This document shows, in pieces, positions 908 through 40,986 of a stretch of 64,000 bases of DNA. Made by a program: the position numbers and the translations under genes. This DNA comes from Sphaerolaimus hirsutus (lineage: Eukaryota; Nematoda; Chromadorea; Monhysterida; Sphaerolaimidae), in the NCBI GenBank assembly GCA_964036195.1, contig OZ038456.1, forward strand, positions 19,220,001 to 19,284,000, in the 5' to 3' direction. Below the pieces are notes generated by a model. It saw only the letters and a program-made list of their open reading frames with translations. It was not told the origin of the DNA and did no database searches. Position 1 is the stretch's first letter, and the number at the start of each line of letters is the position of its first letter.

Positions 908-27295
<26,388 letters not shown>

Positions 27296-29684: not shown

Positions 29685-29867
29685 GGGGCACTCCCAGACC
29701 CTGTAAAATGCCCTGTAAAAAGTCAAATGTCATGCAAGCGTCAAAAGTCATTGAAAATGCCCTGCAAAACGTACGTTTGCCATTTTGCAGGGCATTTTCC
29801 ATGACTTTTGACACTTTGCATGACATATGACTTTTTACAGGGCATTTTACAGGGCTGAGAGTGGCAC
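29685..29867. mobile_element. Complete introner-family element outside a known gene
   Basis: It starts GGGGCACTCCCAGACCCTGT, ends GCTGAGAGTGGCAC, and is flanked by CAG (29682-29684) and CAA (29868-29870). The two halves are nearly perfect inverted repeats around TTTGCCATTTTGCAGGGC. It is the best reference for the full element. Confidence 0.9.
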
Positions 29868-33661: not shown

Positions 33662-33731
33662 ATGGATCTGAAAATTGGCCTACCTGCAATAATTCTGTTC
33701 ACAGTTATATTGTCTCTACAATGCTTCAATG
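33662..33731 (+). CDS. DB-module gene exon 1: signal peptide
   Basis: ATG opens MDLKIGLPAIILFTVILSLQ then CFNG, with one basic residue, a hydrophobic core and likely cleavage near the end of the exon. The donor is aatg|gtatga, phase 1. The 5' UTR extent is unknown. Confidence 0.8.
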
Positions 33732-36700
33732 GTATGATTTTTTAGATTTCACTTATCAGAGTACAGTAAGTGTCATACAATAATTTTCAAGTTATAACAT
33801 CTTTGAGTTTTGAAAAATTAAAAAAGTTAATGTTTCTCAATACTTTCATGGAACACTTTATAATATGTCCACTCAATGTCTCAAAAATACTACAATTTCA
33901 TGATATTTTCGAAACAGTGAATCAGCATCAATCTTCATAGGTAGTTACACTTCTCAGCGCTTCACGATGCATCACACCCACTTTTTTGCTGTGAAAAAAT
34001 AGCCATCCAAAATGACCCCAAAATTACCCCCCCCAGCCAACAGCGCGCAGTGCTCCAAAAAGAAGAACCTATGTTCAGTCTATGGCAAGTGCTACCGTGA
34101 GTGCACCAGGTGCCAATCCCAGACTCTGTAAAAGTCCTGTAGAATGTCAAATGTCATGAAAAGTTTCAAAAGTCATCGAAGATGCCCTGCAAAATGGCAA
34201 CTCGGTTGCCATTTTGCAGTGCATATTCCAAAACTTTTTACACTTTGCTTTACATTTTACATTTTACAGGGCTTTTTACAGGGTCTGGGAGTGCCACCAG
34301 AATGCAAAAAAATGACTTTACCTGCGAAAATGGCCAATGCTGCTGCAAAAACAGGGGGGAGGATAGTGGAGAGGGAGAGGGGGAGGGGGAGGCACAGGGG
34401 GAGGCACATACTGATGATGGGGGTGGTAGGTTGTTGGTGTTGTTTTTTTAAAAACACCAATATTTACCAAAAAACAGGCTTTTCGAAATAAGCTGTTTCA
34501 AAAAATAGCAGCTAGAATTTTCAGTAATTATTCACCAGAGTTGTTCAAATTACTGAACTTTTTTAAAAGTAAATGTAAACGTAAAGTATTTTTATTTTAC
34601 TCATCAAAGAGTATAGAAAACATAAAATACTTTTCTTTTACTCGTACGTACGCGTAAATGCGAGTACAAATTGAGTGTAACAATAACATAAATAACAAAA
34701 CCTTCAGTTTGTGTTCTGTGAAATGCAGAACACACGTTAAAACAATGACGGAGTCGCGTTAGAACAGGGTTTATATACCATCTATATTTACATACTTATA
34801 TAGGTAACTCTATAAATACATAGGTATACTCTTGTACTTGGTGAATATTTTCTACCTCAGCGTACATGACAAACAACGAATTAGCGCTGATAGTTCCAAA
34901 ACATTCTGGCGAAGTAATAAACCCCCCTCGAAATACCCTTGTTTAACCCACCCCCCCTCAAAATTAACACTATGAAACAATTTCGAGGGCTTTGCGAGGA
35001 AATAGAGTACATTGCAGTGTAGTCGGGGGTCCACTGATACGCACATCTGCCCGATACGCACATTTGCCCCTTTTTTCACTTGATACTTTTTCAAGTGATT
35101 TTCAGATATGAGTAAAGTGAAAAAAGTTGCGCAATGACATTAGTGAACTTTTTTCACTTCACTCATATCTGAAAATCACTTGAAAATGTGTCAAGTGAAA
35201 AAAACGGGCAAATGTGCGTATCGGGCAGATGTGCGTATCAGGCCTGCCCCGTGTAGTCACCTTATAAATATGTCCCACATTGACTTCACAGAAATACGTT
35301 TTCTTTACGCGTATGCTTCAAAAACGTACGCGTACACGTGAGTACATTACTTTTTTTAAAGTATATGTAAACGTATTTACCGCGTACTCGCGTACGCGTA
35401 TTTTTCGAGTAAACGTACGTACCTTTTAACAACTTTGTTATTCACTAGGAAATTCATAACACCTTGTAAAAAGTACTTGAAATCAATAAAAATACCGTAT
35501 TTGTTTGAATAGTTCCCCCTCGAATCACCCCCCCTGTAAGACGAGCGAGGAAATAATAATTCCCTCCTTGAATAACCCCCCCCCCCTGAAGAGATCTGAT
35601 CAATTTGTTGTGCCCAATTTGAAGAAAAATGGCACATTATTGTGTCAATAAAGCATATATCATTGAATGAGTTAAATACTGGTACTGGTACTACTGGTAA
35701 AAATACTGGTACTCACGTACTCGCGCACTTTATGAAAGTACGCGAGTATGGAAAACGTATTTTAAGGGGACAGAAAATGTCATTATTCCAGACAGAAAGT
35801 GAGAAAAATAGAAAAAAAATTACTAAGAAATACTTATCAGGAGAGAAAACACATTTTTGATGTATTCCAGAGTGAACATCAAAAAAGATGCTGATTTTTA
35901 CATTATTTTTGTGAGAGTAAATACCCACTTTTACGTTTTCTCTGGAAAAAATAGTCGTTTTACCGTTTTCTCTGAAAAAAAAATATTTTACGCACATTTA
36001 CGCAGTGTAAAAGTATTTTTAAAATTCTTTACGTTTTCTGTACTCAACTGTGAGTGAAAAATAAATACTTTACGTTTACGTTCACTTTCAAAAACATTCA
36101 GTACTTTTAACAACTCTGAAAAAAACCATAGACCATCCCTACATGCACCCCCCCCCCCACCTCTTTCAGATACTGGATCCGGAGGGGAATCTCTCAGTGG
36201 TATTGCTGAAGCAAAATCTGGTAGTGGTTCGAAACCGAAACCGAAACCGAAACCGAAAACCAGCAGTTCAAAGCCAACAAGTAATGGCGGTAGTAGCAGT
36301 AGCAGTAGTGGGGTTAGTGCCTGGTGGGGGCAGTCCCGGACTCTGTAAAAAACACTGTAAAGTGTAAAAGGCCCTGTAAAGTGCCATGTGTCATGTAAAA
36401 GACCCCTTAAAGTGTCATGTATTCAAATATTATTGTATCGCATCCAAAAGTTATGCTTTTTGTATAAAAATCTTACCTTTGGACATAAGATTTGGATACA
36501 AAAACATAAGAATTGGACATGATGCGATTGAGGCGTCTAATTCTAAAAGTCGACAAGTCCACAAAATGCGATTTTGAGTAAATCGCATTTTAAGTTTCAT
36601 TTCGAATTCCAGGTCCGTGGTGCGTGTCCAATGGGGCCTCTCTCATGCTCTACCTGAAGTTCCAAATGTTAACAATAAAGCGGGAATTAGAGCTCAGTCA

Positions 36701-39700
36701 CGACGTCATTTCACGTCATCATTTCACGTCGAATCGACGCTGAGCTCTAATTCCCGCTTAAAGTGTCAAATTTTCAGCCCCTGCTTTCAACGTATAATGG
36801 AAAAATTGTGTGTCTATAAAATTCTACTCGGACAGAACAAAACCGTTTTGGGGAGGAAAATGCACTTGTCGACTTCTTGCACTCGAGAACATTTTTTGTT
36901 CCCGTCCGCGTCCTGCCTGCCTTATGGGAAATTTATGGACTTGTCGACTTTTAGAAATCGGTGTCCATGATGGACTTGTCACATTTCTTGCATTTTTTCC
37001 CATCAAATAAGGCTGCGGAAGGTGGACTTGTCGACTTTTAGCCCAAAACTAAATGGACTTGTCAACTTCTTGCCAATTTTTTTGCAGTTTTCCCTGAAAA
37101 TGTCAAATTTGGCACTTTGCCATATGGGCATGTGAGGTCAAAAAATTCATGGAAAATGATGAAAAATGTGCGGAAGAAGCCCCAGATGACGTTTCCGGGC
37201 CTAACTCAAAATTTTCATATTTTGGACTTGTCGACTTTAAGAATTGGACGCCTCAATTATATTTGGATACATATGACACTTAACAGGTCTTTTTCGTGAC
37301 ACCTGAAACTTTACAGGGTCTTTAACATGACACATCACATTTCACAGGGTCTTTCACAGGGTCTGGGACTGGCACCTGGGGTTGCCTATATTTTGGGATG
37401 GCGGTTGGGTCCAGGGGCCAGTTCCGCAAGTAGACAAGTTAAGAGTTAAAAGTTAAGAGTTGAGTTAAAGGTTAAAAGTTGAGTCAAAAGTTGAGTTAAA
37501 AGTTAAGAGTTGAGTTAAAGGTTAAAAGTTGAGTCAAAAGTTGAGTTAAAAGTTAAGAGTTGAGTTAAAGGTTAAAAGTTGAGTCAAAAGTTGAGTTAAA
37601 AGTTAAGAGTTGAGTTAAAGGTTAAAAGTTGAGTCAAAAGTTGAGTTAAATGTTAAGAGTTGAGTTAAAGGTTAAAAGTTGAGTCAAAAGTTGAGTTAAA
37701 TGTTAAGAGTTGAGTTAAAGGTTAAAAGATGAGTTAAAAGTTGATTTAAAAGACAAATGGGTCATTCGTTGCAGAAGCGCGATACGCTGATCTTCAATCA
37801 TATTTTGTCCCCGCAAGGCCATTTTGAAACAACGTTCGCGATTTTTTTTTTTGCGATAATTTTTTTGGATACGTTGTTTTCAAATGTCGTGCATACAACA
37901 TTGGCAGCATGCCAGCGAACAGCCGTATCAATACCAATTTCACATTTTTATTTTTTTACCATCATTTTCCACTTGTCTCTTAACTCAACTCTTAACTCTA
38001 CTCTTAACTCAACTCTTAACTCTTAACTCAACTTTTAACCTTTAACTCAACTCTTAACATTTAACTCAACTTTTAACTCAACTCTTAAATTTTAACCTTT
38101 CTCTTAAACTTTAACTTTTCTCTTAAACTTTAACTTTACTCTTAACTCGCCATTTGTCATTTTACTCAACTCTTAACTTTTAACTCTTAACTTGTCCACT
38201 TGCGGAACCGGCACCAGTACAATTTCGGAACCATGTAAAAATGAAAGTGAAAGTGTAAAAGTGTAGGTAATGTTATTTATAGTTATGACATTCCACAGAG
38301 CACGGCACCAGCCCATGATGTTCAGTGTTGATTTCAAATTACAACCATTTAGACAACAGCCGCTAACTACCCCCTTAAATAACTCCCACGGGGAGCTTAT
38401 TCAAGACTTTTCGGTACATGTTCTCTATATTACCTAGTTGATTAGCCGAATCACCTAAAAGTGAATTCATCCCGACAAAAACACAGGGTTCAACCGATGA
38501 CGAAATCGAAGAATGCTGCGACAAGAAAGGCTTGCCGTCGGGATGCAAAAAATACTGCAATGTGAAAAGCTTCACCGACTCCACTGTACGTCATCAGATT
38601 TTTAAGTGTTCCTTTCAACAAAAACTCAACCTAAAATTTGGGTGGTAAAACAAAACAACTTGTCAACTTGACAACAACAACATGACACAGAACTTCATTC
38701 AAGCAGTGACATTATTTTACTCAGTGACAATGACTAATAGTGACGTTAAATGATGTTAAATTGACATGGAATTCACGCCGCACATTGAAAATGGCGCCAC
38801 GGTGCTTTTGGCACTGGCAGAACACAATGTTGTAAATGGTTACCGCCGTAAGAAAGAGGCCCAGTGAAAACACTCTGGGTTTTCACAACAGTAAATCATA
38901 GTTGTTAAAACGTATTTACGTTTACTCGATAAATACCGATACTCGAGTACTGTGTAAATACGTTTACGTTTCCTCCCAAAAAAACCGGTTCTCACTTACT
39001 CGCGTACTTTAAAAAGTATGCGCATACGGAAAACGTATACCTATCTAACCGGCTTTTTCATGGGCTTTATTAAAGTATAAAGGAAAAAGAAGGAGAGAAA
39101 GGCTAAAAACAGAGATAAAGTATCGAGAAAAAACCCATTAATATAGGCAAAAATATATTTACTTTTGAATTTGGTGGTGAAAAAGTTTGAAAATTACTGA
39201 TTTGAGCAAAAATTGTGGCTAAATTTCTCAAAAATACCTACCGTATTTCCTCGAAATACTCCCCCCCCCTAGAAATACCCCCCTCGAAATACCCCCCCCC
39301 CCTCAAAATGGGCACTATGTATTTGTGGTCCGGGAAATGCATAACAGACGTTCAAAACACTTACTGTGTTACGTTAGAACATCGTTTATACCATCTACCG
39401 TATATCCTTGAATAAGACCCCCCCTTGAATAATACCCCCCTTGAATAACACCCCCCTGTTGGCCAGGTGAGGAAAAAATAACGCCCCCCCTTGAATAACT
39501 CCCCCTTCTTGAATAAGTCCCCCCTCTGGGTAAAACGACAATGTGTATTTGAATGATTCAGACGCCGATGAACACGAATTTTAGGATGGATACGTTGTTT
39601 TTGTTCTTGTTGAACTGGTCATTTTCTGCATTACATGTGTTGACGGAATGCATACAAACAATGAATAAAGTGAAAGTTTTCCTGGAAGTTCTGAGGAAAA

Positions 39701-40986
39701 AATAACTCCCCCCCTTGAATAGTACCCCCCCTTGAATAACTCCCCCCTCCAAAACCTCTGACGAAATAATAACGCCCCTGGGGTCTTATTCAAGGATATA
39801 CGGTACATCATTATAAAAAACAGTAAAAACTTATAAATGGTGGTTATTGTTGCATTTTTCACGTTTTTCTCTCAAAAATTCCACTCTGAAAAAATAAACC
39901 CCCTGGGGGTATTTCGAGGAAATACGGTACTTTTACGTTTTCCTGGGACGTTTACTTATGAGTAAATGTAAAAAAATAAATACTCTACGTTTTCTGTACT
40001 CAGCTGTGAGTAAAAAATAGCTACATTACATTTACGTGGTACTCTCAAAAAAGTTCGGTACTTTTCACAACTCTGCAGTAAATACGACATTGTCCGCATT
40101 TCAAATTGTTGCTGCACACACTAGTTTACTCAAATTGGGTGCTCAAAAATCAGCTTTGAACGTATTCGAGTTTATCAGATTGAGTTCTTAAAAAATATCG
40201 TCAACTGTAGTTCACAGACATCTCATTCTGGGGCCAGTTACGCAAGTGTAAAAGTTAAAAGTTAAAACTTAAGAGTTGAGTAAAATGACAAATGACAAGT
40301 TATGAGTAAAGTTAAGAGTTAAGAGTTGAGTAAAACGACAAATGATTTTACTCAACTCTTAACTTTTAACTTTACTCTTAACTTATCATTTATCATTTTA
40401 CTCAACTCTCAAGTTTTAACTCTTAACTTTTCCACTTGCGCAACCGGCACCTGGTAAACTAAAATGCTATCAGACGATTTACGAGTTCACAACATCCCGA
40501 GTTCCCAGTAAAATACTGTGTGCAGCGTCAGCACTCGACGCATTCAAACGGGCCAAAAAAACACATCCTAAACCCCCCTCCCATCGCAGCTGACCAAACT
40601 GTACCTGAACAAAGACTCCGGCTGCGGCCAGGTGCCAATCCCAGACCCTGTAAAAAGCCCTCTAAAATGTCAAATGTCATGCAAAGTGTCAAAAGTCATG
40701 GAAAATGCCCCGCCCTGCAGGGCATTTTCCATCACTTTTGACACTTGACATACATTTGACATTTTACAGGGCATTTTACAGGGTCTGGGACTGCCCCCAG
40801 TCCGACATGCAGCAATTGACAATCTGCATCCAACGAGAAAAGGACCATACGGATTGTTGTGAAAGTGCCGGTGTCCAAGACATGTGCATCACTTTCTGCG
40901 ACATCAAAGGGGGTCTGCCGAATTTGGGCGCCAAGCATTTGAAGTGCAGAGACGACGTGCCCAAGATGCAGAATTGTTTCAAGTGA
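33662..40986 (+). CDS. Secreted Cys-rich protein with a DB module (whole gene, 7 exons)
   Basis: Seven exons (70, 73, 125, 143, 99, 42 and 186 bp) join in phase to a 245-residue protein. It has an N-terminal signal peptide (MDLKIGLPAIILFTVILSL, QCFNG), a small Cys-rich segment (about residues 28-60), an acidic Glu/Gly run, a Lys-Pro/Ser linker, and a complete DB module with CC-x(3)-G-L-P-x-G-C near its start and DCCESAGVQDMC-x-x-F-C near its end. The DB module is a small disulphide-rich domain known from secreted nematode and arthropod proteins; its function is unknown. The product should be extracellular. Its second and sixth introns are each a single introner-like element. No promoter motif could be recognised; the ATG at 33662 is chosen because it opens the signal peptide. 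Confidence 0.85.
34037..34109 (+). CDS. DB-module gene exon 2: Cys-rich segment
   Basis: The acceptor is acccccccccag. The product is ANSAQCSKKKNLCSVYGKCY then RECTR. It ends exactly at CAG before the introner element at 34110 (donor cag|gtgcca). A gtgagt at 34097 looks like a better donor but gives the wrong phase for exon 3. Confidence 0.82.
34110..34300 (+). mobile_element. Introner-like element forming the whole intron 2
   Basis: The 191-bp intron is one inverted-repeat element (GTGCCAATCCCAGACTCTGT ... GTCTGGGAGTGCCAC, 34110-34297) plus the duplicated CAG (34298-34300). CAG also precedes it (34107-34109). The element's first two bases give the GT donor and the duplicated target gives the AG acceptor, so splicing restores ...CACCAG-AATG.... 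Confidence 0.9.
34301..34425 (+). CDS. DB-module gene exon 3: Cys and acidic segment
   Basis: The frame is MQKNDFTCENGQCCCKNRGE, then DSGEGEGEGEAQGEAHTDDG. The M here is internal. The exon ends at a donor gtaggt (34426); gtggta three bases earlier would delete one glycine and is weaker. The GAGGGGGAGGG run is simple repeat and may vary in length. Confidence 0.8.
34426..36169. other. Intron 3 of DB-module gene, repeat-filled
   Basis: It begins a CAGAGTTGTTCAAATTAC hAT-like end at 34537, and a matching AACAACTCTG end lies at 36118; no clean 8-bp duplication, so probably several nested elements. It includes a perfect foldback (35035-35240) and CCGTAT fragments (34905-35010, 35495-35600). Confidence 0.65.
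35035..35240. repeat. Foldback repeat
   Basis: TGATACGCACATCTGCCCGA on the left is answered by TCGGGCAGATGTGCGTATCA on the right, and the inner arms (CAAGTGATTTTCAGATATGA) also pair. The arms are about 90 bp with a short spacer. Confidence 0.9.
36170..36312 (+). CDS. DB-module gene exon 4: Lys-Pro/Ser linker
   Basis: The acceptor is acctctttcag. The product is DTGSGGESLSGIAEAKSGSG, then SKPKPKPKPKTSSSKPTSNG and GSSSSSSG. The donor is ggg|gttagt in phase 0. The (AAACCG)n and (AGTAGC)n stretches are simple repeats. This low-complexity linker separates the Cys-rich segment from the DB module. Confidence 0.75.
36324..37375. mobile_element. Long introner-family derivative with CTG duplication and nested element
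   Basis: It starts GTGGGGGCAGTCCCGGACTC, ends GGGTCTGGGACTGGCAC, and is flanked by CTG (36321-36323, 37376-37378). A second element is nested at about 36527-37258 (ATTGAGGCGTCTAATTC ... GAATTGGACGCCTCAAT), which itself holds a palindrome near 36678-36762 (AAGCGGGAATTAGAGCTCAG and its complement) and repeated TGGACTTGTCGACTT. Confidence 0.88.
37415..38214. mobile_element. Second CAG-target family element, 800 bp
   Basis: It starts GGGCCAGTTCCGCAAGTAGA, ends CTTGCGGAACCGGCAC, and is flanked by CAG (37412-37414 and 38215-38217). The left interior is a tandem array of 62-bp units made of AAAGTTGAGTTAAAAGTTAA-type blocks (37440-37750), and its complement occurs at 37975-38190. Confidence 0.9.
38487..38585 (+). 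CDS. DB-module gene exon 5: first part of DB module
   Basis: The acceptor is caaaaacacag. The product is GSTDDEIEECCDKKGLPSGC then KKYCNVKSFTDST. C-C-x(3)-G-L-P-x-G-C-x(3)-C is the opening of a DB module. The donor is act|gtacgt, phase 0. Confidence 0.9.
38897..40075. mobile_element. hAT-like element (TSD CAGTAAAT) with two levels of nesting
   Basis: It starts CATAGTTGTTAAAACG, ends CTTTTCACAACTCTG, and is flanked by CAGTAAAT (38889-38896 and 40076-40083). Inside is a CCGTAT element at 39241-39927 (TA on both sides), and inside that a second at 39398-39803 (CCGTATATCCTTGAATAAG ... CAAGGATATACGG, TA on both sides). Confidence 0.93.
40231..40450. mobile_element. Second CAG-target family element with CTG duplication
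   Basis: It starts GGGCCAGTTACGCAAGTGTA, ends CACTTGCGCAACCGGCAC, and is flanked by CTG (40228-40230 and 40451-40453). The arms are made of AAGTTAAGAGTTGAGTAAAA in inverted orientation. Confidence 0.92.
40590..40631 (+). CDS. DB-module gene exon 6 (42 bp)
   Basis: The acceptor is cccatcgcag. The product is LTKLYLNKDSGCGQ. It ends at CAG directly before the introner element. It is far shorter than the ORF cut-off but links exons 5 and 7 in phase and supplies one of the DB cysteines. Confidence 0.85.
40632..40800 (+). mobile_element. Introner-like element forming the whole intron 6
   Basis: The 169-bp intron is GTGCCAATCCCAGACCCTGT ... GGGTCTGGGACTGCCCC (40632-40797) plus a duplicated CAG (40798-40800); CAG also precedes it (40629-40631). 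It is homologous to the intron at 34110 along its whole length. It folds as a near-perfect hairpin around GCCCCGCCCTGCAGGGC. Confidence 0.93.
40801..40986 (+). CDS. DB-module gene exon 7: end of DB module and stop
   Basis: The product is SDMQQLTICIQREKDHTDCC, then ESAGVQDMCITFCDIKGGLP and NLGAKHLKCRDDVPKMQNCF, K, stop (TGA). H-T-D-C-C-x(3)-G-V-x(3)-C-x(3)-C closes the DB module. A CCGTAT-like hairpin element starts about 40 bp after the stop, so it probably lies in the 3' UTR. Confidence 0.93.
   Translation, partial: SDMQQLTICIQREKDHTDCCESAGVQDMCITFCDIKGGLPNLGAKHLKCRDDVPKMQNCFK

What the first reader, a model, noticed from the sequence alone, without database searches (positions are those of the whole stretch)
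34107..34300. Transposon that is exactly an intron (introner-like element), case 1
Seen: CAG|GTGCCAATCCC ... GGGAGTGCCAC-CAG|AATG. The element (34110-34297) has terminal inverted repeats and is flanked by CAG on both sides. One CAG ends exon 2, the other supplies the acceptor AG. Removing the intron gives the sequence expected before insertion, with no change of frame. Known: introners are transposons that create introns by carrying splice sites and using target duplications. Inference: this intron arose by insertion of this element into a coding CAG of the DB-module gene.
Basis: partly seen in the sequence, partly recalled or inferred. Interest (0 to 1): 0.95.

Follow-up and report, generated by a model that had tools for sequence, protein, structure and literature searches.

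The report
Palindromic transposon that makes introns
A 188-base palindromic jumping element has landed inside a gene at the letters CAG so that its ends look exactly like the ends of an intron, and sister copies in the same animal genome sit the same way inside other conserved genes, so this looks like a transposon family that manufactures introns.

Summary
Confirmed and extended. Window 34110-34297 is a 188-bp near-perfect hairpin flanked by CAG; with the second CAG it is exactly intron 2 (34110-34300) of a seven-exon gene model (33662-40986; leader, Cys-rich region, DB module). Intron 6 of the same model (40632-40800) is another copy, and four DB paralogues fetched from the same genome run through that position uninterrupted. 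In the 348-Mb genome 2504 exact copies of the end CAG|GTGCCANTCCCAGAC exist (reversed control 0). Of 40 scored copies, 29 have identical CAG or CTG duplications; removing element plus one duplication restored a Pfam domain across the junction in 7 of 20 loci chosen by eye (SLC12, galactosyltransferase, OSCP1, MFS, laminin EGF, cuticlin, amnionless), each with CAG on the coding strand. The CWG target and GKG ends match the NuwaI group of PHIS (PIF/Harbinger-like) transposons; no matching transposase was shown. There is no RNA evidence, and by simple splice-site scores the flush pair is not the best in-frame choice, though the internal GTAAAA donor and, in case 1, both TTTTACAG acceptors lie inside the stem. 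Best reading: a genome-scale introner family from a CWG-targeting transposon, in an unnamed animal.

The parts
34107..34109 (+). left CAG, last three bases of exon 2 (target duplication, copy 1)
   Evidence: sequence; coding frame
34110..34297 (.). 188-bp palindromic element, ends GTGCCAATCCCAGAC / GTCTGGGAGTGCCAC
   Evidence: self-alignment, fold, 40 copies with consensus
34298..34300 (+). right CAG, supplies the acceptor AG (target duplication, copy 2)
   Evidence: sequence
34110..34300 (+). inferred intron 2 (191 nt, GT-AG), case 1
   Evidence: gene model, stop on read-through
33662..33731 (+). exon 1, ATG and hydrophobic leader
34037..34109 (+). exon 2, Cys-rich
34301..34425 (+). exon 3, Cys-rich then Glu/Gly-rich
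36170..36312 (+). exon 4, low-complexity linker
38487..38585 (+). exon 5, first part of DB module
40590..40631 (+). exon 6, DB module
40632..40797 (.). second copy of the element (166 bp)
40632..40800 (+). inferred intron 6 (169 nt) = element plus CAG; absent from the four paralogues fetched
40801..40986 (+). exon 7, end of DB module and stop
23333..23524 (+). possible third case: degenerate copy plus CAG in the tail of an ALK/LTK-like gene; reading frame not resolved
   Evidence: sequence; kinase exons
29685..29867 (.). copy outside any exon that I recognised, flanks CAG/CAA
59385..59517 (.). related element with CTG on both sides

Best explanation
The thing is an introner: a non-autonomous, palindromic DNA transposon (MITE) whose insertion creates a spliceosomal intron. 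Shown: the element has inverted ends beginning GKG, and most copies examined are flanked by a duplicated CWG. Inferred from that anatomy: when the target is CAG on the coding strand, the first CAG stays as the exon end, the element's own GTG supplies the donor GT, and the second CAG supplies the acceptor AG, so splicing returns exactly the pre-insertion codons. Inferred: the RNA of the element folds into one long stem that hides internal GTAAAA and most TTTTACAG sites and brings the two terminal sites together at its base. Inferred: mobilisation by a NuwaI/PHIS-type transposase that targets CWG.
For: Window: element, duplication, frame and DB module; two copies flush in one gene; DB score of the flush product 57.8 bits against 52.5 for +6 aa and 50.7 for -4 aa. 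Paralogues: the four fetched exons over the case-2 position are uninterrupted. Genome: 2504 exact CAG|GTGCCANTCCCAGAC ends, reversed control 0. Of 40 copies (37 distinct sites), 19 CAG/CAG and 10 CTG/CTG. 7 of 20 chosen junction peptides hit Pfam across the junction, e.g. SLC12 1e-34 and OSCP1 3e-19 with no net length difference to the profile. 12 of 12 copies that I took as exonic carry 1-6 in-frame stops. Oriented by CAG, GT is at the 5' end in 21 and at the other end (reverse complement) in 7 of 26 unique clean copies; discordant 18 v 4, P 0.004. The internal GTAAAA donors and three of four TTTTACAG acceptors are paired in the predicted folds.
Against: No RNA. The flush pair ranks 11th of 27 (case 1) and 8th of 30 (case 2) in-frame donor-acceptor pairs by a linear matrix of recalled human-like frequencies, and the acceptor has no pyrimidine tract. 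The upstream gtgagt (34097) is predicted more open (0.61) than the flush donor (0.34). Two other in-frame products of case 2 score about as well for DB (57.7, 57.2). Some copies in flanks that look coding to me have CTG on the coding strand (L002; L015/L020), which gives no flush AG. 12 of the 20 peptides had no Pfam hit at E<=0.01. No paralogue or relative shows case 1 without the intron.
Confidence: 0.88

Rival explanations
1. The element is removed by splicing but with other sites: the upstream gtgagt at 34097 (or gcaagt at 34085) with an internal TTTTACAG (34269 or 34281), or the GTAAAA 18 nt inside the element as donor, so some element sequence is exonised.
For: The upstream-donor pairs keep the frame and score higher by a linear matrix; gtgagt at 34097 is predicted unpaired at 0.61 against 0.34 for the flush donor.
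Against: In case 1 the GTAAAA donor and both TTTTACAG acceptors have an unpaired probability of 0.01-0.02 (in case 2 one TTTTACAG is at 0.23, near the flush acceptor's 0.28). The gtgagt route drops one of eight cysteines. For case 2 the +6 aa product scores 5 bits lower. In SLC12, OSCP1 and Glyco_transf_7C the junction lies in stretches that align to Pfam with no net length change, where six extra residues would stand out.
Confidence: 0.08
2. The insertion is not spliced: it is a recent disrupting allele or the gene is a pseudogene.
For: No RNA evidence; donor and acceptor are weak.
Against: All seven exons are open and joined with GT-AG; two copies are flush in the same gene; 12 of 12 copies taken as exonic, 7 of them in Pfam-supported genes, would truncate the protein if retained. 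Case 1 differs by 10.6% from the consensus of 40 copies, a weak argument against a very recent event.
Confidence: 0.02
3. An old intron was already there and the element later replaced or filled it.
For: Such elements do lie inside larger introns; two do in this gene model (36327-37375, 37415-38214).
Against: Element plus one CAG is the whole intron in both cases, with CAG on both sides; the case-2 position has no intron in the four paralogues fetched.
Confidence: 0.02

Closest known systems
Introners of DNA-transposon type (Gozashti et al. 2022, PMC9860276; section 7 and passages seen)
   Same: Non-autonomous elements, some with TIRs and 3-9 bp target duplications; some carry one splice site and take the other from the duplication; most families leave mRNA length unchanged; 5 to more than 2000 copies per family.
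   Different: Among animals and land plants that survey found introners in only two groups, both animals; the string CAG does not occur in its main text. Here the duplication supplies both the exon-final CAG and the acceptor AG, and the consensus is a perfect palindrome.
Introner elements of Amoebophrya (PMC7789003; passages seen)
   Same: Inverted repeats predicted to fold into a hairpin that joins the exon boundaries; 3-5 nt direct repeats at the boundaries.
   Different: Those are mostly non-canonical introns with 8-20 nt inverted repeats in a dinoflagellate; here GT-AG ends and a stem over the whole length.
NuwaI transposons, PHIS superfamily (PMC4482050; passages seen)
   Same: 5'-CWG-3' duplication; ends usually GGG (here GTG or GGG); reported only from animals.
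   Different: Those families were identified through a DDE transposase; none was linked to this element here, and intron formation is not mentioned in the passages seen.
Micromonas and Aureococcus introners; Fritillaria borealis introns (recalled; only citations and short mentions seen)
   Same: Transposon-like insertions that act as introns.
   Different: Other lineages; their targets were not compared here.

Membership tests
Introner / introner-like element | Many similar copies, each being a whole intron of a different gene | tested here: met
   7 of 20 chosen joined loci rebuild a Pfam domain across the junction, plus DB case 2; that they are introns is inferred from coding continuity
Introner / introner-like element | Removal restores the pre-insertion coding sequence | tested here: met
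   SLC12 69 residues on 69 positions, Glyco_transf_7C 71 on 71, OSCP1 50 on 50
Introner / introner-like element | Intron-free homologue at the site | tested here: inconclusive
   Met for case 2 (four fetched paralogues uninterrupted); for case 1 no homologue was found
Introner / introner-like element | Spliced in RNA | not testable with these tools
   no reads available
NuwaI (PHIS) | CWG target duplication | tested here: met
   29 of 40 copies identical CAG or CTG on both sides; 4 CTG/CAG; 7 imperfect
NuwaI (PHIS) | TIR 12-61 bp, first three bases usually GGG | tested here: inconclusive
   ends begin GTG or GGG; the inverted repeat covers the whole element
NuwaI (PHIS) | DDE transposase plus Myb/SANT protein in an autonomous relative with the same ends | tested here: inconclusive
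   PF13359 has at least 163 matches (150 of 306 candidates scored); the families looked at have other ends (GGCCCC...); Myb/SANT not searched
PIF/Harbinger proper (Tourist-like) | TWA-type 3-bp duplication (recalled) | tested here: not met
   duplication is CWG

The most novel reading that the evidence does not exclude
In this unnamed animal a CWG-targeting, perfectly palindromic transposon is converting coding CAG triplets into introns on a genome scale: the target preference alone fixes both splice-site contexts, the stem masks internal splice sites, mainly sense-CAG insertions with GTG at the 5' end persist in exons, and insertions at CTG can become introns by a single T-to-A change in the second duplication (CTG..CAG in 4 of 40 copies, CAG..CTG in none).
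Probability: 0.45. Interest if true: 0.85.

Novelty: new variant of a known kind. Interest (0 to 1): 0.77.

Why it matters
How introns arise in bulk is a long-standing question, and a survey of 3,325 genomes found introners in only two groups among animals and land plants (PMC9860276, passage seen). Here one chromosome-scale animal genome holds thousands of copies of one element end (2504), the 40 copies examined being 4-11% from their consensus, with a simple geometric rule: CAG target plus GTG end equals intron. That makes intron birth, early selection and the role of an RNA hairpin in splicing directly testable by counting copies by target strand and end type and by reading RNA.

Tried and rejected
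Considered and rejected: CACTA or hAT origin (wrong duplication, recalled); a 5-bp duplication ACCAG at case 1 (breaks the symmetry of the ends; other copies give 3 bp); the abundant DDE_Tnp_4 families as the mobiliser (other ends). A blind scan for inverted ends with equal flanking triplets did not single out CWG: CTG had 5 and CAG 4 pairs, behind TTC 47, AAA 45, AAT 25 and others, which I put down to low-complexity repeats; a second scan likewise (24 of 1303 pairs with equal flanks; CCC 4, CAG 3, CTG 3). Protein search with the DB protein: 2333 candidates, none at E<=0.001. End pattern in the viral and prokaryotic collections: 0 and 0 (records of this genome may be left out there). The ALK-tail copy (23333) could not be fixed to one reading frame. 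Ends outside the focal copies gave no significant CAG/GTG association (17,6/14,9, P 0.53) against 21,5/13,19, P 0.003 for the focal copies; the focal set was drawn by similarity to a query that includes its CAG flanks, so that contrast is indicative only. The 20 peptides sent to Pfam were picked by eye: 15 CAG-sense (7 hits across the junction), 3 CTG-sense (L002, L008, L020; no hit), 2 from CTG/CAG loci (L026, L034; no hit), so 7 of 7 CAG-sense is open to selection. L020 looks like PGAP2 to me (recalled). Of six genome matches covering the case-2 position I fetched four; the other two (C4:17508369 with one TAA; C15:11039695 at E 0.55) were not read. The counts for CTG|GTGCCA, CAG|GGGGCA and CTG|GGGGCA did not complete.

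Full report
What is there. Window 34110-34297 is a 188-bp inverted repeat over its whole length. It aligns to its own reverse complement from end to end, and as RNA folds at -95.9 kcal/mol against a shuffle mean of -39.7 (z -13). CAG flanks it on both sides. Two other full copies lie in the window at 29685-29867 and 40632-40797, with degenerate or related ones at 23333, 1725, 36327-37375, 59385 and elsewhere. Of the 22 family ends with at most 4 mismatches to the end consensus (my count from the rows), 11 have CAG or CTG beside them, against 2.6% expected (P 1.7e-12); of all 43 rows up to 7 mismatches, 13. A blind scan over all triplets did not single out CWG among the window's many repeats.

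The gene. Seven exons joined with GT-AG give one 245-aa protein from 33662 to 40986: leader, Cys-rich part, low-complexity linker, and a full DB module (PF01682, profile 1-97 of 97, 54.2 bits). Intron 2 (34110-34300) and intron 6 (40632-40800) are each exactly one element plus the second CAG. Their lengths, 191 and 169 nt, are not multiples of three, and reading through meets stops. The DB module spans the intron-6 junction. The flush product scores 57.8 bits, the +6 aa product 52.5, the -4 aa product 50.7, a fourth product 49.6, and two other in-frame products 57.7 and 57.2, so the domain score excludes some but not all alternatives.

Caution about the boundaries. Because the element begins GTG and the target is CAG, any insertion into a coding-strand CAG looks like an intron. 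The flush ends are therefore not independent evidence for splicing. A linear splice matrix (frequencies recalled) ranks the flush pair 11th of 27 in case 1 and 8th of 30 in case 2. In a predicted fold of the pre-mRNA the internal GTAAAA donor and both TTTTACAG acceptors of case 1 are buried (mean unpaired probability 0.01-0.02) against 0.34 and 0.49 at the flush donor and acceptor, but the upstream gtgagt is more open (0.61). In case 2 one TTTTACAG (40769) and an internal AG (40720) are at 0.23, near the flush acceptor (0.28), and two exonic sites are more open than the flush ones (donor 40601 at 0.69 v 0.51; acceptor 40812 at 0.46).

Genome. The window is G000:C9:19220001-19284000 of a 348-Mb, 762-contig assembly with contigs up to 34 Mb. 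The end CAG|GTGCCANTCCCAGAC occurs 2504 times exactly, the reversed control 0 times; the matching counts for CTG and for GGG ends could not be obtained. I read the 40 scored copies, of 2635 first-look candidates, with about 1.5 kb on each side; three repeat another site, so 37 are distinct, and one is case 1 itself. Lengths are 188-190 bp. After correcting two boundaries, 19 have CAG on both sides, 10 CTG on both, 4 CTG left and CAG right, and 7 are imperfect. The consensus of the 40 folds into one unbroken stem of about 94 pairs apart from its last few end bases, -163.8 kcal/mol; copies differ from it by 4-11%, case 1 by 10.6%.

Copies in other genes. I removed element plus one duplication and translated across the junction in all frames (32 of the 40 loci). 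From these I chose 20 peptides by eye for Pfam; 8 had a hit at E<=0.01 and in 7 it crosses the junction: SLC12 1e-34, Glyco_transf_7C 1e-26, OSCP1 3e-19, MFS_1 3e-17, EGF_laminin 4e-15, CUT_C 9e-9, Amnionless 4e-5 (the last below its curated cut-off). The eighth, TPR_17 in L038, ends at the junction and is below its cut-off. SLC12, Glyco_transf_7C and OSCP1 align with no net length difference. In these 7, and in the DB gene, the coding strand reads CAG. Of the 20 peptides 15 were CAG-sense, 3 CTG-sense and 2 from CTG/CAG loci; the last two groups had no hit. In 12 copies taken as exonic (the 7 plus L005, L023, L025, L038, L039, judged by eye) the incoming frame meets 1-6 stops inside the element; 7 of the 12 introns are multiples of three in length.

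Direction. In 26 unique copies with clean duplications, oriented so that the target reads CAG, the 5' end begins GT in 21 and the other end (reverse complement) in 7; 18 v 4 discordant, P 0.004. In ends outside the focal copies 49 of 69 have CWG beside them and no association of CAG with GTG was seen (P 0.53). This fits retention of copies that give a GT donor, with the caveat that the 40 were drawn by similarity to a CAG-flanked query. Four copies are CTG..CAG and none CAG..CTG. L032 and L034 have GT at the 5' end of the longer open strand, while L012 and L026 have GG there, so the idea of a T-to-A rescue is suggestive only. A related hairpin in a high-copy Harbinger-type element (L063 724-915) is also CTG..CAG and its removal joins an open frame of 143 aa.

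Intron gain. Searching the genome with the DB protein gave 15 matches. Six outside the window gene cover the case-2 position. I fetched four (L066-L069), and all four run across it in one open exon (28-45% identity over 75-81 columns). Two of them, L066 and L068, keep the YL and the Cys before the junction that flush splicing keeps in the window gene. The other two matches (one with a TAA, one at E 0.55) were not read. No match to the case-1 region other than itself was found in the genome, and no homologue in the protein database.

What it works like and what it is. It works like a DNA-transposon introner (PMC9860276, section 7 and passages). The CWG duplication is the hallmark given for NuwaI elements of the PHIS superfamily, whose ends usually begin GGG (PMC4482050, passages). 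The transposase was not identified: PF13359 gave at least 163 matches, but the families examined have other ends. A hairpin joining exon boundaries was proposed for Amoebophrya introners (PMC7789003, passages). None of the 8 papers listed, of 27 found, with two of the terms NuwaI, introner and intron gain holds the word NuwaI. A 2025 paper on horizontal transmission of introners (recalled) is not held, so the family may be known there. The host is an unnamed bilaterian (recalled distribution of ALK-like receptors; best kinase hits are annelid, mollusc and spider).

Noticed in passing
window ~5000-24850, + strand: An ALK/LTK-like receptor gene (glycine-rich domain and tyrosine-kinase exons) fills much of the left third; a degenerate copy of the element flanked by CAG on both sides sits in its tail at 23333-23521.
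   Followed up: partly
window 37415-38214, 23829-24040, 40231-40450: A second hairpin family with ends GGGCCAGTTNCGCA and CAG or CTG duplications; the ends do not begin GT, so flush introns are not expected.
   Followed up: partly
window 36327-37375: A roughly 1-kb relative of the element (ends GGGGCAGTCCC / GTGCCAGTCCC) with CTG after its right end and CTG three bases outside its left end, inside intron 4 of the DB gene model.
   Followed up: no
L063 724-915 (left end also in L061, L062; both ends in L064): A related hairpin element, CTG..CAG, lies inside the coding region of a high-copy Harbinger-type transposon; removing it joins a 143-aa open frame, as if one transposon had become an intron of another.
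   Followed up: partly
L012, L026, L032, L034: Four copies have CTG on the left and CAG on the right; none of 40 has the reverse.
   Followed up: partly
window 14460-20900: Satellite-like arrays with 115-116, 145 and 465-bp periods between ALK kinase exons.
   Followed up: no
window 34037-34355: The Cys-rich part of the DB protein has eight cysteines and only weak similarity to solved structures (coprisin, E 0.016).
   Followed up: partly
L041-L060: A very abundant DDE_Tnp_4 family, many copies nearly identical, with ends GGCCCCACGCACACTAG and apparent introns.
   Followed up: partly
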